Assembly: GCA_947306425.1 (NCBI GenBank)
Contig: CAMZGO010000014.1
Coordinates: forward strand, 1-40,394
DNA: 40,394 bases
Source: an uncultured Elusimicrobia bacterium
GTDB lineage: Bacteria; Elusimicrobiota; Elusimicrobia; Elusimicrobiales; Elusimicrobiaceae
Reading direction: 5' to 3'
Within the stretch, counting starts at the first letter, position 1, and each line of letters starts with the position of its first letter. The notes below the pieces were generated by a model, which was not told the DNA's origin, did not search any database, and saw only the letters and a list, made by a program, of their open reading frames with translations. The position numbers were made by a program, and so were the translations under genes. Shown piece by piece: positions 130-39,967 of the stretch.

Positions 130-573
130 CTAGCAAGTAGGTGTTTGGAATTGCCCTAAAGAAGAGCAAATTTGCGTACCATTGGTTTCACCGCAACCTA
201 TTTTACCGCTTTCATATTCTTTTTGCATGGTATAGATATACTTACCACCTGATCTTGTGGCGGTTACACATTTATCACCTATTGCAATAGTAAAGTTCTT
301 GGTACCAAACTGTGTAGAAGCAGCAGCAACAGGATTACCAGAATTATCGGTAAAGTCTAAATCAAGCCCACCGAAATTTGCGGAGTAGCCGTCATTGACT
401 AAATAATATCTCTGTTGGGCACCAACGATGGAACCAAACAATGACAATGCTTCTGAAGCTTTTGATTTTTCAACAGCTTTGAAGTATTGCGGTAAGGCAA
501 TTGCTGCCAATATGCCGATTATCAAAACGACAACCAGCAATTCAATGAGGGTAAAACCCTTATTATTTTTCAT
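130..573 (-). CDS. Type IV pilin-like / pseudopilin protein (pilin 1)
   Basis: A 147-residue prepilin-like protein. It has a short basic leader (MKNNKG) cut by prepilin peptidase between G6 and F7, then the hydrophobic N-terminal helix [17 protein letters not shown] with Glu at mature position 5, which is needed for methylation and assembly. The globular part has four cysteines, the last at the C-terminus, probably forming disulfides. I chose the ATG at 573 over the upstream one at 603 because AAGGAG sits just before it and the leader then has the usual length. The gene stands alone with its own promoter and terminator, and no pilus assembly genes are nearby. Whether it forms a pilus, a type II secretion pseudopilus or another filament cannot be told. 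Confidence 0.9.
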
Positions 574-607
574 AGTTTTCTCCTTTGTCCCTTTTGGGTA
601 CACTTAA

Positions 608-6970: not shown

Positions 6971-7894
6971 ATGCATCATTTATCACTTTGGATTTTGTTT
7001 TGGGTTATCGTAATCCTAGCACTAGGACTTGACCTTTTTATTTTAAACAAACATCACGGGCATGTCTCAATTAAAGACTCTTCCGTTATGGTTGCAGCCT
7101 GGGTAACTTTGGCATTTGGCTTTGGGGGCATTATTTGGATGGCTTCCGGCGCTCAAAGCGCTTTGGAATATCTTACCGGATATGTAATAGAATATTCGCT
7201 TTCAATAGACAATATGTTTGTTTTTATTATGATTTTCAGTTATTTTTCAGTACCGAAAGATCATCAGCCTAAAGTTTTGCTTTGGGGTATTTTGGGGGCC
7301 GTAGTGATGCGCTTTATTTTTATATTTATCGGAGTACAACTTATAACGCGCTTTACTTTTATGATTTACATTTTCGGTTTAATTTTGATTTATACTGCCG
7401 GCAAAATGTTAATCGGTAAAGAAGAAAAGATTGACCCTGCCGGAAACCCTCTTTTAAGGATGCTTAAAATGATAGTACCTATAGACCCCTCAATCAAGAA
7501 CGGGAATTTCTTTTGCAGAAAAAACGGAAAGATTTGTGCAACTACTTTGTTTGCGACAGTTATTGTTATAGAGGCATCTGATTTGGTCTTTGCCGTTGAT
7601 TCAATACCGGCGGTACTAGCAGTAACACAAGATACTTTTATAGTATACACTTCAAATATTTTTGCAATTATAGGGCTTAGGTCGCTTTACTTTTTACTCT
7701 CGGGTATGGCAGGCAAATTTGAGTACTTAAAATACGGCATAGCCGCAGTATTAGCCTTTGTAGGTACAAAAATGTTAGTATCACATTTTTACCATTTTCC
7801 TACCGTGCTTTCTCTTATTATTATTGTTTTGATTTTGGGTATAGCCGTGTTTGCATCTGTCTTTAGAAATAAACAGACCTTGAAAAATATTTAA
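6971..7894 (+). CDS. TerC/Alx-family integral membrane protein
   Basis: A 307-residue, roughly nine-helix membrane protein. It has the TerC family signatures EYSLSIDNMFVFIMIFSYF (about residues 75-95) and VIEASDLVFAVDSIPAVLA (about 198-216), each with conserved acidic residues in the membrane. Alx/TerC proteins are linked to manganese efflux and to metalation of exported proteins. No yybP-ykoY-type leader can be present, because only 19 bases separate it from the upstream gene. The last four bases overlap the end of the convergent gene. No clear ribosome-binding site is visible. Confidence 0.9.
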   Translation: MHHLSLWILFWVIVILALGLDLFILNKHHGHVSIKDSSVMVAAWVTLAFGFGGIIWMASGAQSALEYLTGYVIEYSLSIDNMFVFIMIFSYFSVPKDHQPKVLLWGILGAVVMRFIFIFIGVQLITRFTFMIYIFGLILIYTAGKMLIGKEEKIDPAGNPLLRMLKMIVPIDPSIKNGNFFCRKNGKICATTLFATVIVIEASDLVFAVDSIPAVLAVTQDTFIVYTSNIFAIIGLRSLYFLLSGMAGKFEYLKYGIAAVLAFVGTKMLVSHFYHFPTVLSLIIIVLILGIAVFASVFRNKQTLKNI

Positions 7895-9567
7895 AATATA
7901 AAATTGTCTCTTGGTTCTAAATGAACATTTTGATCTATTGCTTTAAATAAATCCTCTTGGGCTTGGGCACAGGAAGAACGACTGTCGCAACCCCTAAATG
8001 TTTTGGATACATATACATTTTGCCATTTAACATTCCTTCTGCATATTGTCAAATTCTCAATATCAAACCATTCTGTTCCACCTTTTACTTTAAGTGCTTC
8101 CAAGGAATCACAATCGTCATTATTTCCATCTCTTACATAATCCATATTGCATGTTGCTGCATACGTTCTTCCTGCTTGTTCTAAATCTTTGCATTTTGAC
8201 TTTATTGTGTCTATTGTATCATTCCAAAGTTTCCTTAAATCGTCAGTTTTTTTACCCCAACACACTTCTCCTATTCCCAAATCCATACATCTCTTACAAG
8301 AACCGGGGGCGCCCTTTTCAGCGACATTTTCTAAATTATTTACTTTTTCACCACGGGAAATTGCCTTTAACTTTTCTTTTTCATTTGCGTATTGTGTTCT
8401 TAAATTTCTCGTAGCGGCCTCATATTCCTTTCGGCCCTGCTCACACTTTGCCATATTATCTTGCACCGTACGCATAATTGTTATGGGGGCAATACCTTCA
8501 TCAACAGTAGGAACGGTGTCCATCGTTTGGCTGGGCGCTACAAGAACTTTGTCTTGTTGTTCTTCCCCGTGAAATGCAATTTCAGATAAATGTTTTGCAG
8601 ATTCCCTATATTTCCTGCCGACGGCGGCATGGCTATAAAAATAACTGTTAAAAGCATCTTGCCCGGAAGTTCCAAAAAAATCAAATAATTCCCCTTTTGG
8701 CAATTCATCAGCGACATAATACCCTAAAACCTCACGACCGCCAAAAGAACGTAAAGAGCCAAAAGTCTTTGCGAATGCACTAGCCCCTATTAATTTGGAA
8801 ACAGAACTTTCCGTCTTATCTACTTTAAAAGGTGAACCGGAAAAAACGGGTTTGACAATACGGCTGTTATTTAAATCAATGGTTCTGCTTTGAGCTTGAG
8901 AGGTCGTATCATAAACAGAACTTACAAAATCCGGTAAAGCCTCTTTTGAAACAATTTGTTCTTTATCTTGCTTATCATAACTGCTGCGGGCTTGACGGCG
9001 GGTACCGCGGCCTTTATTTACGGCTGATTTTCCTGCATCAGCACCATAGTAGGAACCATCCTCAAATCCCTGACTAGAAGAAAGATAATCACCTGACGGC
9101 AAAGCCCTGACACCCTTTAATTCACCGGAAATTTCAGGTGTATCGGCTTCTTTACCGTCTTGATAAATGCCGGCTATTTCCGAGGGTCTGCGGCGGGTTT
9201 TTTCGTATTCATTATAATACATTTCCCGTGCATTTAAAAGGCGCTCGGTTTGCGGTTCAAATATTGAAGAAAGAAACATTTGCGGTTCATTTACAATCTC
9301 TTGCTTTTTAAAGGTTTCTTGCATATTTTTTGTTTCTACACCTACAGAACTTAAAGCCAAATCAAGTAAAGTAAGTTTCCTTGCTACAGAAGCAGATAAA
9401 CCGAATTTTGATGCAATATTGCTCAATAACGGTACATAAGAAACAGGCACAGCAATAGTAATAAACATCGCCAAAATAAGCAATAATACAAGCCCTAAAT
9501 ATAATTTCTTCTGGCTTTGTTGCTTTGTTTTTACCGGTTTAATTTCTTTCTTGTTTTTATGTATCAT
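7891..9567 (-). CDS. Unrecognised membrane-anchored protein with a cysteine-rich C-terminal third
   Basis: 558 residues; I do not recognise the family. A basic N-terminus is followed by one membrane helix (about 22-46), which predicts an extracytoplasmic body. The middle (about 85-370) is polar, with arginine-rich and aromatic patches and no cysteine. From residue 375 on there are ten cysteines, including CKRC and DCD, interleaved with a predicted helical stretch (EYEAATRNLRTQYANEKEKLKAI). The even number and export topology suggest five disulfides. GAGG precedes the ATG by six bases. Last gene of the six-gene run that starts at 15176. Confidence 0.6.
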   Translation of the reverse strand: MIHKNKKEIKPVKTKQQSQKKLYLGLVLLLILAMFITIAVPVSYVPLLSNIASKFGLSASVARKLTLLDLALSSVGVETKNMQETFKKQEIVNEPQMFLSSIFEPQTERLLNAREMYYNEYEKTRRRPSEIAGIYQDGKEADTPEISGELKGVRALPSGDYLSSSQGFEDGSYYGADAGKSAVNKGRGTRRQARSSYDKQDKEQIVSKEALPDFVSSVYDTTSQAQSRTIDLNNSRIVKPVFSGSPFKVDKTESSVSKLIGASAFAKTFGSLRSFGGREVLGYYVADELPKGELFDFFGTSGQDAFNSYFYSHAAVGRKYRESAKHLSEIAFHGEEQQDKVLVAPSQTMDTVPTVDEGIAPITIMRTVQDNMAKCEQGRKEYEAATRNLRTQYANEKEKLKAISRGEKVNNLENVAEKGAPGSCKRCMDLGIGEVCWGKKTDDLRKLWNDTIDTIKSKCKDLEQAGRTYAATCNMDYVRDGNNDDCDSLEALKVKGGTEWFDIENLTICRRNVKWQNVYVSKTFRGCDSRSSCAQAQEDLFKAIDQNVHLEPRDNFIF

Positions 9568-9664
9568 ATAAACCTCTATTTTACACTACCAACCTCTTAG
9601 TAAACACCCCTTTGTTACTCCTTGACATCTACCTAATTTTGCTTAACATCAAAATCAAGGCGAT

Positions 9665-10357
9665 TTAATTTGACGAAGATGTTTGCAAAGTCTTTCTCTC
9701 TGTTTTAAATGTTTGCAATTTCATTTTTGCTGCATTTGCTTTTGCCGCTTTTTGCGCTTTAATTCTTTCTAGCTCTCTTGCTTTTTGAAGCGCAGCGGCA
9801 CGTTCTTGTTCTTGTTTTTGCTTTTCTTGTCTCAAACGTTCTTGTTCCGCTTGTGCCTTGGCTTTAGCTTCAGCTTCGGCTTTAAGGCGGGCTTCTTCTG
9901 CTTGGACTTCCTTTAACTTTGCATTATAAGCCGCTACTTCAGCACTATAATCAAAGGCCTGTGTTTTTTCTTGCTCTGCAAGTTGTTTTTCCCGTTGGGT
10001 AACAATTTCCTGTTCGGCAAGTTTTGCATTTAAAAGGTCATTTTTTTGCTTTGGTTTTGATACTCCGTCAATACCTAATTGTCTTAAACGTCTTTGCTGG
10101 GCAAGTTCACGCTGCCTTTTCGCCTCTTGTCTGTAATATTCCTGTATTTCAGGTGCTTGCAAGGCCTTTTCATAATTTGCTTTTATTTGCCGTTTAGTTG
10201 AAATGTTATCTTGAATAATAAGAAATATCATCACTAAAAAGGCAACAAAAATTACAATTGCCAAAGCAATACTTACAAAAGCCCCAAATTTGGAAGGCGC
10301 TTTTTTAGCACCTTCCAAATTTTCTTGTTGTTTATTGGTTTCATTTAAATTTTGCAT
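9665..10357 (-). CDS. Single-span membrane protein with a long coiled coil
   Basis: 230 residues. One membrane helix at about 24-48 is followed by an almost continuous coiled coil rich in Glu, Lys, Gln, Arg and Ala up to the C-terminus. The composition resembles the middle domain of TolA, but there is no recognisable TolA C-terminal domain. AGGGG lies just upstream of the ATG. It has the same plan as the smaller protein at 12005-12436, so the locus encodes two bitopic coiled-coil partners. A bridging or spacer role between membrane and envelope is inference. Confidence 0.6.
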   Translation of the reverse strand: MQNLNETNKQQENLEGAKKAPSKFGAFVSIALAIVIFVAFLVMIFLIIQDNISTKRQIKANYEKALQAPEIQEYYRQEAKRQRELAQQRRLRQLGIDGVSKPKQKNDLLNAKLAEQEIVTQREKQLAEQEKTQAFDYSAEVAAYNAKLKEVQAEEARLKAEAEAKAKAQAEQERLRQEKQKQEQERAAALQKARELERIKAQKAAKANAAKMKLQTFKTERKTLQTSSSN

Positions 10358-10385
10358 AATGTGCCCCTATTCAAAGAATCAAATT

Positions 10386-11957
10386 TTAATGAGGTATTAA
10401 TATGCTCTTTAAAAAGTCAGTCCCATACTTCTTTAAATTAGAAACAAATTTTATAACATCCTTTGCAAAACCAACAATCTTTGTCCAATTAATGAAACAC
10501 AGTCCTAATACACCTTGTAAAGTTCCATACGTCCACCAAGCATTTGAAACCTTATGGTCAAAATCTATTCCTTGGTTTACAAGCGTAAGGTCTTTCATGT
10601 GCGATATTATACCCAATATTGACTTACTATGATCACCAAAGCCGTAAAGCATGCCGTACATATATGCTTCAGCTCCAGCAGCAACTGCAGCTGCTGCTGC
10701 CCAAAGCCATGCGGTATAAGGTCCACCGGCATAAGCCAACTGCACCAAAACACACAAAGCAACCGCAAGAACCATCGTACCTACTATTAAATCTTTAAAT
10801 CTATTAAGCAATTGTTTTTCAGATTCAGCAAGGTCCTCTTGTTGTTTCTGAATCTCACTAATGACCTCAGGAAGAGCGACGCTTAAAGCATGCGGAAGGC
10901 TTGAATTTGAACTTGCATCCATTAATTGGTTTGCAACCGTTGCTATACTTGCGCCCGATTCTATCGTAGAACCAATACTTTCCGGATTACTGCCGTCAAA
11001 TGCCGCCGCCGCCAATTGCTTTGCTCCGGCTTCCGCTTTTGATGCTATTGCTTTACCGGAATATATTGCCGCCATTTGCAAGTCCCCAGCTGCACCACGG
11101 CTATTACCGCCCTTACCATTGTCTATTTTACCGCCGGCACGGGCTACATTATATCCGCCCATCGCTCCGCTTCGCCCAAACTTAAAAGAATCTCCATCCG
11201 CTTGTTTTGCTTGTTCCGGTGTGTTGTTTTGAGGTAAGGCCCTTGTATTGCTATCTTGTGAAGAACCCCCAAATGAAACACTGCTTGAAGAACTGCCGCT
11301 TCCGCTGCCGCTGCCCCAAGAACTTGCACCGCTTGTTGAAGGAGATAATTTGTTTATCGTTGTTTGTCTTACCTGCCCTGCACTTCTTTGTCCTTTGTTA
11401 CCTTTTGTACTTTTTGACTTACCGGCCCTGCCTTGTGTACCGTCCGTACCTTGCTCATCTCCGCCGGCACCGTAAGCACCGCCTTGCATATAGCCTTGCG
11501 CACTATAAGGCACACCATTTGCATCTACTCCGCCTTGTGCATACATAGGGTTTGACGGGTCATAATTCCCGCCCTGTACATACTGCCCGCCTTGATATGA
11601 GGAATCATATACAAAACCTTCATCACTCCTCATACCTTCTGCATAGGCGCCGTCGGAACTTATTGCTTCGTCTTCATATCCTTCTTCGCTTTTGCCTTGC
11701 ATAAAACGCGCTGTATTACTGTCCTGCTGGGCATACATCTGCCTTTCAAGCGCAGCACGGCTTACAGAACTTCCAAAAAAGGCATTTGAATCACTATAAG
11801 TGCTATCTCCAAATTTTGATAAGGCTGCTTCATTTGCAGCTTTTTGGCTTCCGCCGCTGAAATTATTAATAACACCCATACCTACGAACAGGGTTATTAC
11901 TACTAAAACCGCACCGGCAATTTGTTTAGAGCCAATTTTAGCTAATATATTTTTCAT
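10386..11957 (-). CDS. Unrecognised envelope protein with Gly/Ser-rich module and C-terminal membrane helices (paralogue of 12446-14047)
   Basis: 523 residues. N-terminal membrane helix at 13-31; a tyrosine/glycine/glutamine-rich low-complexity region at about 95-190 with repeated QGG units; a serine-rich linker at 205-235; then the shared module ALPQN (240-244), DSFKFGR (256-262), GGYNVA (267-272), GKGG (281-284), SGKA (300-303), AAFDG (318-322) and GSTI (329-332). A helical stretch (363-390) and three to four membrane helices (about 388-500) follow. A perfect AGGAGG precedes the ATG. Clearly related to the protein at 12446-14047. Function unknown. Confidence 0.6.
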   Translation of the reverse strand: MKNILAKIGSKQIAGAVLVVITLFVGMGVINNFSGGSQKAANEAALSKFGDSTYSDSNAFFGSSVSRAALERQMYAQQDSNTARFMQGKSEEGYEDEAISSDGAYAEGMRSDEGFVYDSSYQGGQYVQGGNYDPSNPMYAQGGVDANGVPYSAQGYMQGGAYGAGGDEQGTDGTQGRAGKSKSTKGNKGQRSAGQVRQTTINKLSPSTSGASSWGSGSGSGSSSSSVSFGGSSQDSNTRALPQNNTPEQAKQADGDSFKFGRSGAMGGYNVARAGGKIDNGKGGNSRGAAGDLQMAAIYSGKAIASKAEAGAKQLAAAAFDGSNPESIGSTIESGASIATVANQLMDASSNSSLPHALSVALPEVISEIQKQQEDLAESEKQLLNRFKDLIVGTMVLAVALCVLVQLAYAGGPYTAWLWAAAAAVAAGAEAYMYGMLYGFGDHSKSILGIISHMKDLTLVNQGIDFDHKVSNAWWTYGTLQGVLGLCFINWTKIVGFAKDVIKFVSNLKKYGTDFLKSILIPH

Positions 11958-12004
11958 AATTCCTCCTATAAATCTTAAATCTTTACTTCTAAAAAACCGC
12001 TACT

Positions 12005-12436
12005 TTATTTTTTTACCGGCCTGCCCGTTTTAGCCGCTTTATAGTTTACTCCTGCTTTGCCTGCAGCATTTGCCTGGGACCGGCGGGCAATTTCCAATTT
12101 CTGCCTATAATCCATTCCGTTTTGAATTTCTGCAATTTTGTTGACTTCTTTATCGCGATTTTTTGCTTCCATACTTGCACGAAATTCCTCTTCTTCCCGT
12201 TGTTGCTTAAGACGCTGTACTTCCAACTCTTTTTCATGCAAGGCCTTTCTTTCCTTTATTTGGACCGCCATACGTTTTGCCCTTTCGCCCTCAATAAAAT
12301 CATGGCTTGCTTTAGAAATATGCCTGTTTGCCATAACTTGAAAGACCAAAATAAGCAAGGTAATTATACATAAAATCAATGAAAAATAATCTTGCTTTTT
12401 TACATTTTCTTTGAAGATAATCTTTCTATTTTCCAT
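12005..12436 (-). CDS. Small bitopic membrane protein with coiled coil
   Basis: 143 residues. Membrane helix at about 17-36, then a charged coiled coil (about 45-120, rich in Glu, Lys, Arg) and a short basic tail ending RPVKK. Only nine bases separate it from the upstream gene, and its ribosome-binding site (AAGGT) is modest. It has the same design as the protein at 9665-10357. No family recognised. The shape recalls bitopic scaffold subunits such as PilO or GspM, but no sequence motif supports that identity. Confidence 0.6.
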   Translation of the reverse strand: MENRKIIFKENVKKQDYFSLILCIITLLILVFQVMANRHISKASHDFIEGERAKRMAVQIKERKALHEKELEVQRLKQQREEEEFRASMEAKNRDKEVNKIAEIQNGMDYRQKLEIARRSQANAAGKAGVNYKAAKTGRPVKK

Positions 12437-12445
12437 AGTTATACC

Positions 12446-14047
12446 TTATTTTTTAGCTTCATCAACTATCTTAGAGGTAATTTCTCCCTCTATGTTTGAC
12501 ACATCAAAGCCCACTACGTCGCTTGCTGCACCTAATGCATTGGTTTCTGCGGTGCTTATTAATTTATCTTGAACTTTTTCCATAAACTTACCTTTAAATA
12601 GATTCCATTCTTTCATACCGCCGTACCAAGCAAGAGCCAAGCCGCCCGTCATCAAAGTAAACATACTGTAATATAACCAGCTGTTATTTGCCTGCCCGTC
12701 TTCCGCACGCAAATTCATTAATTCAGATAAAGTTTTATGGATATTCATACCGTCCCCGTCATAATCCATAGCCCAAATGGAATATAATGCTGCTGCGGTT
12801 ATTGCAGCGGCACCGATATAAGCATAAACGTTCTTTGTCTTAACAAGGGACATTATTGCTACCATAGCGGCAAGTGTCGCCAAAAAAGCTTTTATCAAGT
12901 GGTTAGTTACTGCACCTTGTAAACGCTTTTTCTTTGTAGCATGGTCCTCCCAATCCTCTTTTAGGTTTTTTAAGCCGGAACTAAGCCCTTTGGAATGATC
13001 AAGCCCAAGGCCTATTCCGCCGGCATCAACAACATTTTCCCCGTCTATTGTAGAACCGGTAACAATGTTACCGTCAAATGCTGCATTTGCTGATGCTACA
13101 CCTGCTTCCAAATTTTTGCCGCCGGCAATTTGCATAGTTGCCTTACCTGACCGCCTGTAGGCGATATTTAACTGTGCTTTTGCATCACCGCCCCTGCCGC
13201 CTTTACCGGTATCAACAGCACCTCCGGCAGCTGCAACATTATAACCGCCGACACTACCCCCGCGCCCAAACTTAAAAGAATCGGAAGATGCTTTTCCTGT
13301 AACCTGATTTTGAGGCAAGGCTTTTGAACCGTTGTCTTTTGAAGAACGGCCGGAACCTACATTGGAAGAACTACCGGCACCCGAAATGTTAGCTGAACTT
13401 CCGCTTGAAGCAGAACCGCCAAACATACCTCCTCTCATACTACCCGAACCGGAAAATTCATTAATAGTTGTTTTTGTTGTGTTTCTGTTTGGCCTGTTTT
13501 TTGCTCTTGATTTCTTATTTGCAAGTACTTCATCATCACCGTTTCCATCAACACCGCCGCCTAAACTTTCAAAGGAACTTCTCATACCGTTTTGTGATGC
13601 AATCATTGCCGTATTTTTGGGACTCGCCGCTTTGGCCGCTTCTGCTTTTTGAGTGTCAAAATAAGAACGGGCGGCATCAAAACCCTCTTGCTCTTTAAGC
13701 ATACGGTTTTGTATTGCACTTTGGCTTGTAAAACCGCCTTCGCTTGACGGCAATATACCGCCGGAATAACTGCCGAAGTTATTTATACTATCTTCGTCTT
13801 GAAAATTCAAAATATTGTTTTCAAAGGAATTGATACTTAAATTCATCCCTTCACCTGCAAAAATAGCACGTTTAGCCGGGTTATATGCCGGGGAATTGTT
13901 ATAGGCACTATATACACTGTAAATTACAAATACGGCAAATACACCTATGCTCAAACCGCGCACAGTATTACCGAACATAACACCGCCTTTTTTATCAGCG
14001 GAATTTTTGTTCCTTATATTTTCAATCATTTTACTTATTATTTTCAT
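12446..14047 (-). CDS. Unrecognised envelope protein with Gly/Ser-rich module and C-terminal membrane helices (paralogue of 10386-11957)
   Basis: 533 residues. Membrane helix at about 31-48; polar N-domain; basic patch (KKSRAKNRPNRNTTKTTIN, 178-196); Gly/Ser-rich linker (199-237); then KALPQN (242-247), DSFKFGR (256-262), GGYNVA (267-272), DTGKGG (279-284), SGKA (300-303), AAFDG (322-326) and GSTI (331-334). Three membrane helices follow (about 385-403, 407-426, 458-476). A DYDGDG loop near 428-433 looks like a calcium-loop motif. DSFKFGR and GGYNVA fall at identical residue numbers in the paralogue at 10386-11957. AGGAG precedes the ATG. Confidence 0.6.
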   Translation of the reverse strand: MKIISKMIENIRNKNSADKKGGVMFGNTVRGLSIGVFAVFVIYSVYSAYNNSPAYNPAKRAIFAGEGMNLSINSFENNILNFQDEDSINNFGSYSGGILPSSEGGFTSQSAIQNRMLKEQEGFDAARSYFDTQKAEAAKAASPKNTAMIASQNGMRSSFESLGGGVDGNGDDEVLANKKSRAKNRPNRNTTKTTINEFSGSGSMRGGMFGGSASSGSSANISGAGSSSNVGSGRSSKDNGSKALPQNQVTGKASSDSFKFGRGGSVGGYNVAAAGGAVDTGKGGRGGDAKAQLNIAYRRSGKATMQIAGGKNLEAGVASANAAFDGNIVTGSTIDGENVVDAGGIGLGLDHSKGLSSGLKNLKEDWEDHATKKKRLQGAVTNHLIKAFLATLAAMVAIMSLVKTKNVYAYIGAAAITAAALYSIWAMDYDGDGMNIHKTLSELMNLRAEDGQANNSWLYYSMFTLMTGGLALAWYGGMKEWNLFKGKFMEKVQDKLISTAETNALGAASDVVGFDVSNIEGEITSKIVDEAKK

Positions 14048-14057
14048 AATCTATCTC

Positions 14058-15176
14058 CTAAAAACAAGTCTTTATATCACCGGGATGTTCTTTCATACAT
14101 TCTTTTCTAGCCTTATTCTCTTTCCATCCGCCTTTAGCACCCCATTTCACATAATCAAACCCTAAACTTAGCCCCTGTGAAAGGAGTTTTGCACCCATGC
14201 ATTTCCAACTAAATTCACCATTAGTATCTATACAGTTTTCATTTATATTGTATGTTTTTTGGTTCTTATCTTTGTCCTTATCCTTGTTATTGTTATTTGC
14301 GTTTTTGACATCATCACCAAGGTCACGTTTTAATTGGTCCTGCAAGTCCTCGTTTAATCCAGTAGGGAGTTCATCAAGCCCTGCTTCCTCTTTATCTTTT
14401 TCAAGTTCCGTAGCGGTTTTAGCATCTTGGAAGGCATCAATGGCGGACTGTGCAGCAGTATCTAAATCTGAGGCATTACCGGCTTTTAATGATTCCACAC
14501 TTGCCTGGTAAAAACCAGTATTTTTACCCATATTTTTTGCAAAGGCGACATCTTTTGCCGTTGCCGCATGATTTGAAGGCATCTCTTTGCTTTTTATATT
14601 TTTACCCTCATCACGCCAAATAGTACCAGTAACACTTGTTGAAGCACTACCCGTACCCACTCGGCCGCTGCTACTTGATAATTTATTTTGATTCGTTGTC
14701 GGTCTATTAGAATTATACTGTACTCTTTTTTTACTAAGTTGTGCGGCACGCTCCCTGCGTTCCTCTCTAATTTGCTTTTTCTGCTCTGCCTTCTCTTTAC
14801 TTAAAGCAATTGCTTTATACTCTGGGTCCGGAGGAGGAGGCACACCTTCAGCTTCATCTTTGGCTTTGCGATCCTCACGTTCTTCAGAGGAAAACAAAGA
14901 ACCCAAAAGGTCTTTATTAGAAATATTATCATACTCAGGGTTTTCACTCAAAAAATTATTTAACTCGGCATCTGTACCAAAAGGCATAGAGGCAAGGTCT
15001 TGCATTCTTGAGGAAGCAAATTTACTATAATCGGGTTTATCTTCAGCGCCTATATTAGATATCACACTTACTAAGGTCAATGTAACCACCAAACCGCAAC
15101 CAACCCAAGTATAAAGTTGTTTTTTATTTTCACCCTGGTCCCTCTTTTGACCACTGTTCCTAATTATTATTGACAT
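14058..15176 (-). CDS. Unrecognised membrane-anchored protein, first gene of the envelope locus
   Basis: 372 residues from ATG 15176, chosen because a strong AGGGGAGAG site precedes it; the longer frame from 15254 lacks one. Membrane helix at about 21-42; polar N-domain; four consecutive prolines near 113-116; a charged helix (about 125-150); then RPTTNQNKLSSSSGR, which resembles the TTIN..S segment of the two larger paralogues, a KEMPSN that aligns with their ALPQN, and an AIDAFQDAK like their AAFDG. An Asn/Lys/Asp run precedes a C-terminal part with four cysteines (CIDTNG, KCMG, KECMK, TCF). No family recognised. Confidence 0.6.
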   Translation of the reverse strand: MSIIIRNSGQKRDQGENKKQLYTWVGCGLVVTLTLVSVISNIGAEDKPDYSKFASSRMQDLASMPFGTDAELNNFLSENPEYDNISNKDLLGSLFSSEEREDRKAKDEAEGVPPPPDPEYKAIALSKEKAEQKKQIREERRERAAQLSKKRVQYNSNRPTTNQNKLSSSSGRVGTGSASTSVTGTIWRDEGKNIKSKEMPSNHAATAKDVAFAKNMGKNTGFYQASVESLKAGNASDLDTAAQSAIDAFQDAKTATELEKDKEEAGLDELPTGLNEDLQDQLKRDLGDDVKNANNNNKDKDKDKNQKTYNINENCIDTNGEFSWKCMGAKLLSQGLSLGFDYVKWGAKGGWKENKARKECMKEHPGDIKTCF

Positions 15177-15286
15177 AACTCTCCCCTCTATTAATTTATA
15201 TAGACAAAAAACTGTGCTCTTGCTGACCCACCCCCACATTGCCGGGATGCTCAAACATAGAGCGTAACTACATATTACTTGTTAAT

Positions 15287-15315
15287 AGTATAAACGTTTT
15301 TTTCTGATTTGTCAA
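15287..15315 (-). promoter_or_regulatory. Strong sigma70-type promoter of the six-gene envelope locus
   Basis: On the minus strand TTGACA (15310-15315) is followed after exactly 17 bases by TATACT (15287-15292). Transcription would start near 15280, leaving a leader of about 105 bases before ATG 15176. No other convincing promoter was seen between the six genes, so they look like one transcript. Confidence 0.75.
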
Positions 15316-15382
15316 GAACCCGCATATAAACCCCATTAATATGCGTTTCAAAAATTGTACAATATATTTTGTGGGCAGGTAT

Positions 15383-15826
15383 ATGAAAAAAATTTTCGCG
15401 CCAATAAAACCCGTTTACGATTTTTCTATGTCTATCATAGATAGAACGGCACAAAGTTTAGGTTTAAGCAAATATTTCGCACGCTTTTTAGTAAGCGGGG
15501 CAGTAAATACGGCCTTCGGTTATTCGGTTTTTGCGTTTTTTGTTTTTATAGGTTGCGGGGATTTTACGGCCCCGCTTTTTGCCACAATTTCCGGCGTAAT
15601 TTTTAATTTTAACACTATCGGCGGTATGGTTTTTGGAGATAGGTCCAAAAAATTATTTTGGCGCTTTTGCTTAGTGTACGGTATTGTTTATATATTTCAA
15701 GTGGCAGGGCTTAAATTTTTTGCTGTATGCGGCATAGAAAACCGCTATATTTCCGGTTTTATTTTAATTTTCCCCGGGGCAATTTTATCTTATTTTTTAA
15801 ACAAAAAGTTAGTTTTCAAAAGATAA
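15383..15826 (+). CDS. GtrA-like small membrane protein
   Basis: 147 residues with four membrane helices. The family features are RFLVSGAVNTAFGYSVFAF near the N-terminus and the C-terminal SYFLNKKLVFKR. GtrA-like proteins are thought to flip polyprenyl-linked sugars for cell-surface glycan modification. I chose ATG 15383 (MKKIFAPIKP), preceded by GGCAGG, over an earlier ATG at 15341. It stands between the envelope locus and a convergent MATE gene. No dedicated glycosyltransferase is adjacent, although the WecA-like and LicD/TagD genes in this window are possible partners. Confidence 0.8.
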   Translation: MKKIFAPIKPVYDFSMSIIDRTAQSLGLSKYFARFLVSGAVNTAFGYSVFAFFVFIGCGDFTAPLFATISGVIFNFNTIGGMVFGDRSKKLFWRFCLVYGIVYIFQVAGLKFFAVCGIENRYISGFILIFPGAILSYFLNKKLVFKR

Positions 15827-17707: not shown

Positions 17708-18280
17708 TTATTTTTTGGTGTTATGATGTGTAGTGTATCCACTCTCGCTACCATAAGGAGTAGTTATTCCGCTTAATCCAATTCCATAATTATATATACT
17801 GAAGTCAGCACATATTCTTTCTGCTCTTGCATTATCGGCTTTTGCACGGCAATCTCTATAAGAACTCACGGAATAATTATCTAAAAATAACCTGTGAGTA
17901 TAACCGAAAGAATAGTCAATATTCCCACAAAAAATATCACCGTAAGTAAATGAAGGACGTGGTGCTGTTAAACAACAGTAATAATCGCTAAATACGACAC
18001 AACTTGAATATTTTTTGGGATAAGTTACTTCATTCCCTTCTGAAAAATCTATATCAAGTTGTTTGATATCACTGGGATAATCGTTAGTTGTCAAATGATA
18101 TCTAGTGTAAGCACCAGCAATTTCTTTTGCTGTAGATTGTAATTTCGCAAACTTTGTTTTATCAACAGCTAGCTGATATTGAGGTAAAGCAATTGCTGCC
18201 AAAATACCTATTATTAAAACAACAACTAACATTTCCAATAAAGTGAAACCATTTTTATACAATTTTTGTATTTTACACAT
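17708..18280 (-). CDS. Type IV pilin-like / pseudopilin protein (pilin 2)
   Basis: 190 residues. Leader MCKIQKLYKNG, cleavage between G11 and F12, then [16 protein letters not shown] with Glu at mature position 5. The globular part has several cysteines, among them paired CC and SCVV, and is rich in tyrosine. GAGAGG precedes the ATG. The C-terminal half is unlike that of the other four pilins in this window, while the first 35 mature residues are nearly the same. The gene is preceded by a highly structured stretch (18332-18486) that would be its leader if transcription starts beyond it. No terminator was seen. Confidence 0.9.
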   Translation of the reverse strand: MCKIQKLYKNGFTLLEMLVVVLIIGILAAIALPQYQLAVDKTKFAKLQSTAKEIAGAYTRYHLTTNDYPSDIKQLDIDFSEGNEVTYPKKYSSCVVFSDYYCCLTAPRPSFTYGDIFCGNIDYSFGYTHRLFLDNYSVSSYRDCRAKADNARAERICADFSIYNYGIGLSGITTPYGSESGYTTHHNTKK

Positions 18281-32223: not shown

Positions 32224-32769
32224 ATGAAGAAAATAAAAATATGTATTCAAGGTTTTACTTTAATTGAACTGTTGGTGGTTGTTTTAATTATTGGTATACT
32301 TGCCGGTATTGCTTTGCCCCAATATAAACAAGCAGTAGACAGAACTGAATTTGCCCGACTTCAAGCGCAAGCAAAAAGTTTAGTTGATGCTTATTCCCGT
32401 TATTACCTGTCCGGAAATAAATTTGCAAATAGTGGCACTGAATATTTTGACTATATGGACGTTGATTTCCCTTACGAAAAGCAAAAGGGCGGCTACGGTT
32501 ACAGATGCCGTATTAACGCCGATAATTATTGTTGTATATCGCCTTTATATTCAGATTCTGTATATTGTGCTAAAACAAATTATAGGTTTGGTATATGGAT
32601 ACACTCTATTACTACTACTCCCAAAACTTGGTGTGTAGCTAAACAAGATGACCCCAGGGCACTTAAACTATGTGAAAAATTATGGGATAGAAATAAAAAT
32701 TGGCAAGGTACCGGCTTTTTAACACCAGACGGCATATCTGCTGCAACACATAAGCAATATCCTATATAA
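32224..32769 (+). CDS. Type IV pilin-like / pseudopilin protein (pilin 3)
   Basis: 181 residues. Leader MKKIKICIQG, cleavage between G10 and F11, then [16 protein letters not shown] and Glu at mature position 5. The variable globular part has cysteines at CRIN, CC, CAK, CVA and CEK. AGGAGAG precedes the ATG. The gene is single, on the opposite strand from the other four pilins, and driven by the T16-spacer promoter described above. Its C-terminal half differs from the others, but a shared theme with pilins 2 and 4 is CC/YC and W/Y-rich surface loops. No terminator seen after it. Confidence 0.9.
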   Translation: MKKIKICIQGFTLIELLVVVLIIGILAGIALPQYKQAVDRTEFARLQAQAKSLVDAYSRYYLSGNKFANSGTEYFDYMDVDFPYEKQKGGYGYRCRINADNYCCISPLYSDSVYCAKTNYRFGIWIHSITTTPKTWCVAKQDDPRALKLCEKLWDRNKNWQGTGFLTPDGISAATHKQYPI

Positions 32770-37337: not shown

Positions 37338-37883
37338 TTAATTTAGGTAATATTCGCCCCAAGCTTCTTCATCACCGTTTATTAATTTTCCACCAAGTGC
37401 TTTACAAACTCTGTGTCCTTTATTACCACTGGCATAGCAAATTATTTTATTACGATATTCATCGCTAGGATCATCTGATTGATACATAGTAATACGAAAG
37501 TAATTATTATTATCTATATCTCTATCACAATATACATAGCCTGTATCTTCTTCATTTGCCATACAATACCAATAATCATTCCAACATTCGCGCCCGATTT
37601 CATCACATTCCCAATCACTCGGCCAAGAAACACCTACATCATCTGCAGTGGGAATATCACACCACACTTCAGAATGTATCACTTTACAATAACTGCCGTG
37701 AATAAGTTTCCATTCAGCCAATGCATCATACCATCTTCTCATTAAGGGTAAAATACTTGCAACTTTTGCTTTTGTTAACGCCATTTTATATTGCGGTAAG
37801 GCAATACCGGCAAGTATGCCAATAATTAAAACAACTACTAATAATTCAATTAAAGTAAAACCTTTTTTGTAACTTTTAAACAT
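37338..37883 (-). CDS. Type IV pilin-like / pseudopilin protein (pilin 4)
   Basis: 181 residues. Leader MFKSYKKG, cleavage between G8 and F9, then [16 protein letters not shown] with Glu at mature position 5. The globular part is rich in Trp, Asp and Cys (YCK, WCD, ECD, ECW, YCMA, YCD, ICY, VCK), about eight cysteines, more than in the others. The net charge is acidic. AAGGAG precedes the ATG. It is preceded by a mini-ORF (37914-37928) and by the structured RNA 37952-38209, which make up its leader. Confidence 0.9.
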   Translation of the reverse strand: MFKSYKKGFTLIELLVVVLIIGILAGIALPQYKMALTKAKVASILPLMRRWYDALAEWKLIHGSYCKVIHSEVWCDIPTADDVGVSWPSDWECDEIGRECWNDYWYCMANEEDTGYVYCDRDIDNNNYFRITMYQSDDPSDEYRNKIICYASGNKGHRVCKALGGKLINGDEEAWGEYYLN

Positions 37884-39457: not shown

Positions 39458-39928
39458 CTAGATTTCACAGTTTTTCCATGTACCGTCAGTACGTAATGTC
39501 GTTGCATTACAAACATGCTTACACAATGCTTGCGCTCTTTCATTTGTTTTGTTTGCAAGGCACAATCGGGTTCCTGTTTCGTAATACGCAATGAACAAAA
39601 TTCCCTTCAAATAAGATTCACCGTAAAAATATAATCGATTGTGATCATTTAAATCAACAGTGGCACCATTCAGGGACATAAAACGTCCGGAAGGGGTATT
39701 TCCTTTAAAGGTTACATCAATATCCTTCCAATTATCGGCATAAGTACCGTTGATAAGATAATATCTTTGTTGTGCTTGTTTAACACTATTGGCCAAAGTA
39801 ACTAATTGTGTCATTTTTGATTTATCAACCGCAAGCTTATACTGCGGTAAAGCAATCGCAGCAAGTATACCAATAATTAAAACGACTACCAATAATTCAA
39901 TTAAAGTAAAACCTTTTTTATTTGTCAT
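39458..39928 (-). CDS. Type IV pilin-like / pseudopilin protein (pilin 5)
   Basis: 156 residues from ATG 39928, preceded by AGGAGC; a longer frame from 39952 would make the leader too long. Leader MTNKKG, cleavage between G6 and F7, [16 protein letters not shown], Glu at mature position 5. The globular part resembles pilin 1 (QQRYYLINGTYADNWKDIDVTFKG against [22 protein letters not shown]), so these two are closest. Cysteines near the C-terminus (LCLA, LCKHVCN, NCEI). Its promoter contains a T15 tract. Confidence 0.9.
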   Translation of the reverse strand: MTNKKGFTLIELLVVVLIIGILAAIALPQYKLAVDKSKMTQLVTLANSVKQAQQRYYLINGTYADNWKDIDVTFKGNTPSGRFMSLNGATVDLNDHNRLYFYGESYLKGILFIAYYETGTRLCLANKTNERAQALCKHVCNATTLRTDGTWKNCEI

Positions 39929-39967
39929 AATATTGCTCCTAAAATTTTTCATATTTGTTATAAAAAT

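What the first reader, a model, noticed from the sequence alone, without database searches (positions are those of the whole stretch)
7891..15315. Six-gene envelope locus of unrecognised proteins behind one promoter
Six consecutive minus-strand genes with short gaps follow one strong promoter (TTGACA-17-TATACT). All have an N-terminal membrane helix. Three are large with Gly/Ser-rich modules, two are small bitopic coiled-coil proteins, and the last has a ten-cysteine exported domain. The mix of anchors, coiled-coil spacers, polytopic C-termini and a disulfide-rich end piece looks like a trans-envelope or surface complex. None matches a secretion or pilus family I know.
Basis: partly seen in the sequence, partly recalled or inferred. 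Interest (0 to 1): 0.78.

Follow-up and report, generated by a model that had tools for sequence, protein, structure and literature searches.

The report
Relocated Tad-pilus envelope module, RNA-led
In gut and rumen Elusimicrobiota, six adjacent genes for unrecognised membrane-anchored proteins turn out to be a conserved accessory part of the Tad pilus gene cluster that has moved elsewhere in this genome, and they are preceded by a conserved promoter and a structured leader RNA that matches no described RNA family.

Summary
In detail: six minus-strand genes (A-F, 7891-15176) behind TTGACA-17-TATACT, each with an N-terminal membrane helix, none with an accepted family match. In close relatives the same genes (A-[A']-D-E-F, then a 1,100-1,390-aa Cys-rich protein, a TPR protein and ksgA) sit directly downstream, same strand, of a complete Tad/Flp pilus cluster. 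In 46 of 58 sister-genus genomes holding both, gene A is within 25 kb of tadZA. In this genome the Tad core, the A-F operon and the Cys-rich gene lie on three contigs. B and C are a duplicate of the D-E pair.

Between promoter and gene A lies a 63-nt hairpin RNA with strong covariation (98% of cells paired; score 0.567 against 0.235 shuffled, 0/500) and no Rfam match. A search of 341 genomes found 90 sites in 82 genomes: 82 just upstream of gene A, three upstream of the Cys-rich gene where it stands alone.

Most likely role: an inner-membrane-anchored periplasmic scaffold for a Tad machine whose secretin has little room for the usual N-domains. The Tad link is well supported; the scaffold role is inferred.

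The parts
15287..15315 (-). Promoter TTGACA-17-TATACT
   Evidence: 11/12 match; TTGACA with a 17-nt spacer and TAnACT at all 36 distinct leader sites examined
15205..15267 (-). Structured leader RNA (model R1): long hairpin with invariant UG..UGA / UCA.CA core, variable apical stem, then a U-tract
   Evidence: 19-sequence alignment, 17 pairs, 9 with compensatory changes; covariation 0.567 vs 0.235 shuffled, 0/500; 39 sites, same result; leader fold z = -3.89; no Rfam family
14058..15176 (-). Gene A (372 aa): N-in bitopic, charged helical region, Gly/Ser linker, conserved helical box, Cys near the C-end
   Evidence: relatives in 99 of 341 phylum genomes
12446..14047 (-). Gene B (533 aa): paralogue of D; absent from some relatives
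12005..12436 (-). Gene C (143 aa): small bitopic helical protein, paralogue of E (part of the duplicated D-E pair)
   Evidence: the protein at this position in L011 matches E at 40% over 159 aa, E = 4e-29; L012 lacks B and C
10386..11957 (-). Gene D (523 aa): N-terminal helix, Gly/Ser-rich linker, GRxGxMGGxN...AAFDG box, hydrophobic helices near the C-end
9665..10357 (-). Gene E (230 aa): bitopic, TolA-like charged helical tail
7891..9567 (-). Gene F (558 aa): N-terminal helix, FGG...AFHG box shared with D, Cys-rich C-terminal domain (361-558)
   Evidence: profile-profile to D, probability 95%, E = 3.6e-8; C-terminal part modelled with pLDDT mostly 70-97

Best explanation
The six genes are the distal, accessory module of the Elusimicrobiaceae Tad (type IVc) pilus gene cluster, found away from the pilus core in this lineage. 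SHOWN: conserved gene order directly behind a full Tad cluster in relatives; one conserved promoter plus one covarying leader RNA in front of the first gene. INFERRED from topology: A, B, D and F are anchored in the inner membrane by their N-terminal helix and reach into the periplasm through flexible Gly/Ser linkers; B and D return to the membrane at the C-end; C and E are helical spacers; F and the separately encoded Cys-rich giant are disulfide-stabilised periplasmic parts. They would assemble, through the box shared by D and F among other contacts, into a scaffold that links the inner-membrane Tad platform to the outer-membrane secretin, which here is 246 aa and almost only the pore domain, with little room for the N-domains that usually reach into the periplasm. 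The leader RNA would set the amount of this module by transcription attenuation or by hiding the ribosome site (its U-tract can pair with the purine-rich ribosome site in the predicted window fold). Likelihoods: Tad association 0.85; periplasmic scaffold 0.45; regulatory leader RNA 0.85.
For: Own genome encodes a complete Tad system on contig C3 (L055): CpaB over cut-off (TIGR03177 1.8e-36), Secretin 1e-42, TadA-family ATPase 3e-98 fused to a ParA/TadZ-like domain, two T2SSF proteins, TadE, and two Flp-type prepilins GQATVEY/GQNTIEY. In G001, G008, G012 and G017 the Tad core, TadG-like, TadE-like, A, A', D, E follow on one strand, with F, giant, TPR and ksgA behind where the contig continues; same module order in sister genus g6 (G028, G027, G131, G039), and TadE-like-A-D-F in a fourth genus (L106). 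A lies within 25 kb of tadZA in 46 of 58 g6 genomes holding both, median 14 kb. In G000 the Tad cluster stops after TadG/TadE, the giant is on C18, A-F in the window. Leader RNA: 82 of 90 genome-wide sites are 22-181 nt upstream of A; three more are upstream of the giant in Elusimicrobium-like genomes where it stands alone. The Tad cluster also carries a DsbA-like protein (weak PF01323 match), fitting Cys-rich partners. The Caulobacter Tad secretin has an N3 and a VirB9-like domain below the pore (PMC13170226); here Pfam Secretin covers residues 85-246 of 246.
Against: No experiment. No sequence or confident structure links any of the six to a known Tad part; AlphaFold failed for D (pLDDT 31) and modelled only the C-terminal part of F, without a clear PDB match. 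In several genomes the module is far from the Tad core, so function together is inferred from shared ancestry of the cluster. Two Elusimicrobiaceae genera (g3, g5) have tadZA but no detectable A. In family f2 an A/D-like cluster stands away from the Tad core, so linkage is not universal. Small secretins also occur in genomes where the module was not detected by profile, so 'compensating for a short secretin' is only an idea.
Confidence: 0.6

Rival explanations
1. The module is cargo or tip of the Tad pilus rather than a scaffold: the Cys-rich F and the giant are displayed or delivered at the pilus tip, as the Kil Tip complexes of Myxococcus are, and the other proteins assemble them.
For: Genes lie right behind TadG/TadE-like genes; F and giant are large, variable and Cys-rich. 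Kil Tips are encoded in separate, paralogous clusters and are adaptable (PMC12075869).
Against: None of the six has a prepilin-peptidase motif before its helix, while the Kil tip pilins do; B and D have hydrophobic helices near the C-end; the giant keeps a strongly conserved N-terminal 60 residues, which looks like an anchor that stays in the membrane.
Confidence: 0.2
2. An independent envelope complex (for example a surface or adhesion organelle of its own) that merely neighbours the Tad cluster in many genomes.
For: It is separable: standalone in the window lineage, in Elusimicrobium-like genomes, and, as an A/D-like cluster, in family f2. It has its own promoter and leader RNA.
Against: Adjacency on one strand, in the same order, over several genera; nearly all Elusimicrobiaceae with A also have tadZA; the Tad cluster supplies a DsbA-like protein.
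Confidence: 0.15
3. The 63-nt element is not a leader RNA but a transcription terminator of the upstream gene or a DNA operator (inverted repeat bound by a regulator).
For: Hairpin followed by a U-tract (6-10 T in the next 14 nt); the outer part reads as an inverted repeat.
Against: In the window the upstream gene (15341-15826) is divergent, so there is nothing on this strand to terminate. The element lies 15-34 nt downstream of the -10 box at all 36 sites. The apical stem covaries freely in sequence, which a protein dimer reading DNA bases would not require.
Confidence: 0.12

Closest known systems
Tad / Flp (type IVc) pilus system
   Same: The module lies directly behind a canonical Tad cluster in relatives, and the own genome has a complete Tad core (CpaB, secretin, TadZ-TadA, TadB, TadC, TadE, TPR, Flp).
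   Different: None of the six proteins is a described Tad component; in the window they are unlinked from the core; the secretin is very short and TadZ and TadA are fused.
Kil Tip complexes of Myxococcus (KilL/KilM/KilN)
   Same: Lineage-specific, duplicable gene sets tied to a Tad pilus.
   Different: Kil Tip proteins are TadE/F/G-like minor pilins with prepilin-peptidase sites; the six here lack that motif.
TolA / TonB-like periplasmic spacers
   Same: C and E: one N-terminal helix plus a charged helical tail.
   Different: Resemblance looks compositional; E is below the TolA cut-off.
Rfam cis-regulatory leader families
   Same: Small structured 5' leader between promoter and operon.
   Different: No Rfam 15 family matches on this strand, even at E up to 5; found almost only before this module's genes in one bacterial family (one weak hit outside).

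Membership tests
Tad (type IVc) pilus machinery: are A-F members? | Homology to a described Tad component (TadZ, A, B, C, D, E, F, G, RcpA, B, C, Flp) | tested here: not met
   No accepted match of A-F in Pfam, NCBIfam or PHROGs
Tad pilus machinery: are A-F members? | Encoded with the Tad core | tested here: met
   Contiguous in genera g1 (part) and g6, with a TadE-like gene in g4; not contiguous in the window's own genome
Tad pilus machinery | Own genome encodes a complete Tad core | tested here: met
   L055: TadE, CpaB, Secretin, TadA-type ATPase, two T2SSF, TPR, two Flp prepilins
Tad minor pilins / Kil Tip complexes | Prepilin-peptidase motif (G/A-x4-E) just before the N-terminal helix | tested here: not met
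   Absent in all six; present in TadE-like and Flp genes of the same genome
Tad minor pilins / Kil Tip complexes | Pilin-like fold | tested here: inconclusive
   F: only the C-terminal part is confident, no clear match; D model unusable
TolA | NCBIfam TolA equivalog cut-off | tested here: not met
   E scores 32.7 against a cut-off of 59.45
Anti-phage defence / phage structural module | Match in PADLOC or PHROGs, or presence in phage or plasmid records | tested here: not met
   B; F
Known structured RNA family | Rfam gathering score | tested here: not met
Structured RNA (as a class) | Compensatory base changes beyond chance | tested here: met
Riboswitch | Specific ligand and a ligand-dependent switch | not testable with these tools
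   Needs in-line probing and a ligand screen

The most novel reading that the evidence does not exclude
A previously undescribed trans-envelope sub-complex, built of at least five new protein families including a >1,000-residue disulfide-rich giant, replaces the periplasmic domains of the secretin in the Elusimicrobiota Tad machine, and its output is set by a new class of cis-regulatory RNA that is used for this module only and recurs on the giant's gene where that gene stands alone.
Probability: 0.3. Interest if true: 0.82.

Novelty: new variant of a known kind. Interest (0 to 1): 0.66.

Why it matters
Tad pili are widespread adhesion, sensing and predation machines, yet accessory parts outside the model organisms are mostly unannotated. 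This gives the Tad system of a whole bacterial family a candidate set of missing envelope parts, shows that annotation by profile misses them, and offers a sharp handle: a covarying leader RNA that marks the module's genes in most genomes. The RNA can be tested in a laboratory strain with a simple reporter, and the module in a cultured relative such as Elusimicrobium minutum.

Tried and rejected
Profile searches of all six proteins in four libraries gave nothing accepted. PDB sequence searches with families F and A gave only chance-level matches. The F model gave only helical-bundle matches, best Z 6.7, i.e. no conclusion. An OmpA-like C-terminus of the giant was suspected by eye; Pfam OmpA reaches only 0.0039 at best and matches 3 of 14 members, so left open. 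Sharing of the D/F box by the giant was tested and not supported; for A the profile match to D is weak (E = 0.0014, probability 17%), so only D and F are claimed to share it. TolA membership of E rejected (below cut-off). The Rfam 'uup' match at E = 4.4 is on the other strand and rejected. Phage, plasmid and defence origins rejected. A shared promoter in front of D, F or TadG was looked for and not found; giant genes often have a TTGACA promoter of their own.
Full report
WHAT IS THERE. The window is contig C14 of a 1.44-Mb, 99%-complete genome. Its relatives are rumen and gut Elusimicrobiaceae MAGs. The six minus-strand genes exist as described, with gaps of 9-97 nt and an 11/12 promoter at 15315-15287. 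The conserved start of the first gene is the ATG at 15176, not the mechanical TTG at 15254. I call the genes A (first) to F (last). All have one hydrophobic helix near the N-terminus; none carries a prepilin motif; F has ten cysteines. Pfam, NCBIfam, PADLOC and PHROGs give nothing accepted.

PARALOGY. B and D are paralogues. The protein at the position of C in a relative matches E (40% over 159 aa, E = 4e-29), and another relative (L012) has only A-D-E-F. The six-gene operon is therefore best read as a four-gene module with a duplicated D-E pair. D and F share an ~88-column box (GRxGxMGGxN...YS...AAFDG; hhalign probability 95%, E = 3.6e-8). A similar motif in A is visible by eye but only weakly supported.

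SYNTENY. Within the genus there are three arrangements. (i) G001, G008, G012, G017: the Tad cluster, TadG-like, TadE-like, then A, A', D, E (and F, giant, TPR, ksgA where the contig continues), all on one strand over about 31 kb in G001. (ii) G006, G007, G014: A-D-E-F-giant-TPR-ksgA away from the Tad core; in G007 the Tad cluster ends with TadG and TadE and is followed by unrelated genes. (iii) G000 (the window), G002, G004, G011: A-F (without B and C in G002) between terC and gtrA/MATE genes; in G000, G002 and G011 the giant lies alone elsewhere. In sister genus g6 the contiguous order recurs (G028, G027, G131, G039). Of 58 g6 genomes with both families, A and tadZA are on one contig in 47 and within 25 kb in 46, median 14 kb (computed from the places printed). 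A fourth genus has TadE-like-A-D-F (L106). In the single-contig Elusimicrobium-like genome G018 the parts are in four places: Tad, A-D-small protein, F-TPR-ksgA, and the giant. In family f2 an A/D-like cluster stands apart (L101, L102), and in a more distant family proteins of A-like and D-like architecture follow TadG (L110; the A-like match is weak, E = 3e-6 in a small target set).

THE TAD SYSTEM OF THIS GENOME. L055 carries TadE (1.6e-7), RcpC/CpaB (1.8e-36, over cut-off), Secretin (1e-42), a 735-aa fusion of a ParA-type domain and a TadA-family ATPase (3e-98), two T2SSF proteins, a TPR protein, a DsbA-like protein (named from the weak PF01323 match of its homologue in L034), histidine kinases and response regulators, and TadG-like and TadE-like genes, plus two short Flp prepilins. 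Tad systems in Elusimicrobia have been noted before (PMC6668835). I found no description of this module in the papers searchable here; most subscription papers are not held.

THE LEADER RNA. Aligning upstream regions showed a block far more conserved than the proteins. Nineteen sites align over 69 columns; RNAalifold gives 17 pairs, nine with changes on both sides. Pair counts: 98.1% of cells paired; 62 cells with double changes against 20.2 shuffled; covariation score 0.567 against 0.235 +/- 0.023, none of 500 shuffles as high, and at most 0.173 when the helix is slid. A wider set of 39 sites, fitted to the model and so leaning towards it, gives the same picture. The 107-nt window leader folds at z = -3.89. 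The element sits 15-34 nt downstream of a TATACT or TAnACT box, and TTGACA with a 17-nt spacer is present at all 36 distinct sites. A covariance-model search of 341 genomes found 90 sites in 82 genomes, practically all Elusimicrobiaceae. 82 sites lie 22-181 nt upstream of an A-family match on the same strand; three are upstream of the giant in the g2 genomes; of the other five, two are at contig ends, one lies 726 nt from A, and two are weak. No Rfam family matches on this strand. A terminator for an upstream gene is excluded in the window, because the upstream gene is divergent.

MECHANISM. Shown: gene order, promoter and RNA conservation, topology pattern. Inferred: co-assembly and scaffold function. 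The argument for a scaffold is threefold: anchors with long flexible periplasmic parts; Cys-rich partners together with a DsbA-like protein in the pilus cluster; and a 246-aa secretin in which the pore domain takes residues 85-246, whereas CpaC of Caulobacter has N3 and VirB9-like domains below the pore (PMC13170226). The rival of a tip or cargo complex as in Kil (PMC12075869) is less likely because prepilin motifs are absent. Structure prediction did not help: the D model failed; the C-terminal 200 residues of F are largely confident and mostly helical, with no clear relative in the PDB.

LIMITS. Most genomes are MAGs, so contig breaks hide some adjacency; the g6 and g1 counts are lower bounds for linkage. 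Gene calls in relatives are mechanical ORFs with a simple hydropathy scan. Profiles of D are too divergent to detect most g6 members, which were recognised by position and architecture. The input rule of the structure tool allowed only nine sequences for F and two for D.

Noticed in passing
L044:3722-7555 (own genome, contig C18); L033:3961-7821 and others: A 1,100-1,390-aa protein with 20-42 cysteines and a strongly conserved N-terminal 60 residues (MPNKDSFTFSDK...); gene next to F in contiguous loci, alone in this genome. No accepted family match.
   Followed up: partly
L055:2755-3495: Very short Tad secretin (246 aa) that is almost only the pore domain; similar lengths (246-258 aa) in other Elusimicrobiota families (L108, L109).
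   Followed up: partly
L055:3485-5692: TadZ-like and TadA-like ATPases fused in one protein; a match at E <= 1e-60 is found in 273 of 341 phylum genomes.
   Followed up: partly
window 130-603, 17708-18280, 32224-32769, 37338-37883, 39458-39952: Several single, scattered type IV pilin-like genes with N-terminal methylation-type helices (two confirmed by PF07963), unlinked to assembly genes; similar lone pilin genes recur in relatives.
   Followed up: no
L101 and L102 (family f2): Standalone cluster of one A-like, three D-like and one long protein, away from the Tad core: the module may be older than its Tad linkage.
   Followed up: partly
between promoter and R1, e.g. just 5' of L033:14272 on the minus strand: A second small hairpin of variable sequence (such as GGTAC..GTACC, GGCGT..ACGCC, GCAC..GTGC) near the expected 5' end of the leader in relatives; not tested statistically.
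   Followed up: no
L055:73-1035: A PorV/PorQ-family protein (NCBIfam 6e-22, below cut-off) heads the Tad cluster in this and related genomes.
   Followed up: no
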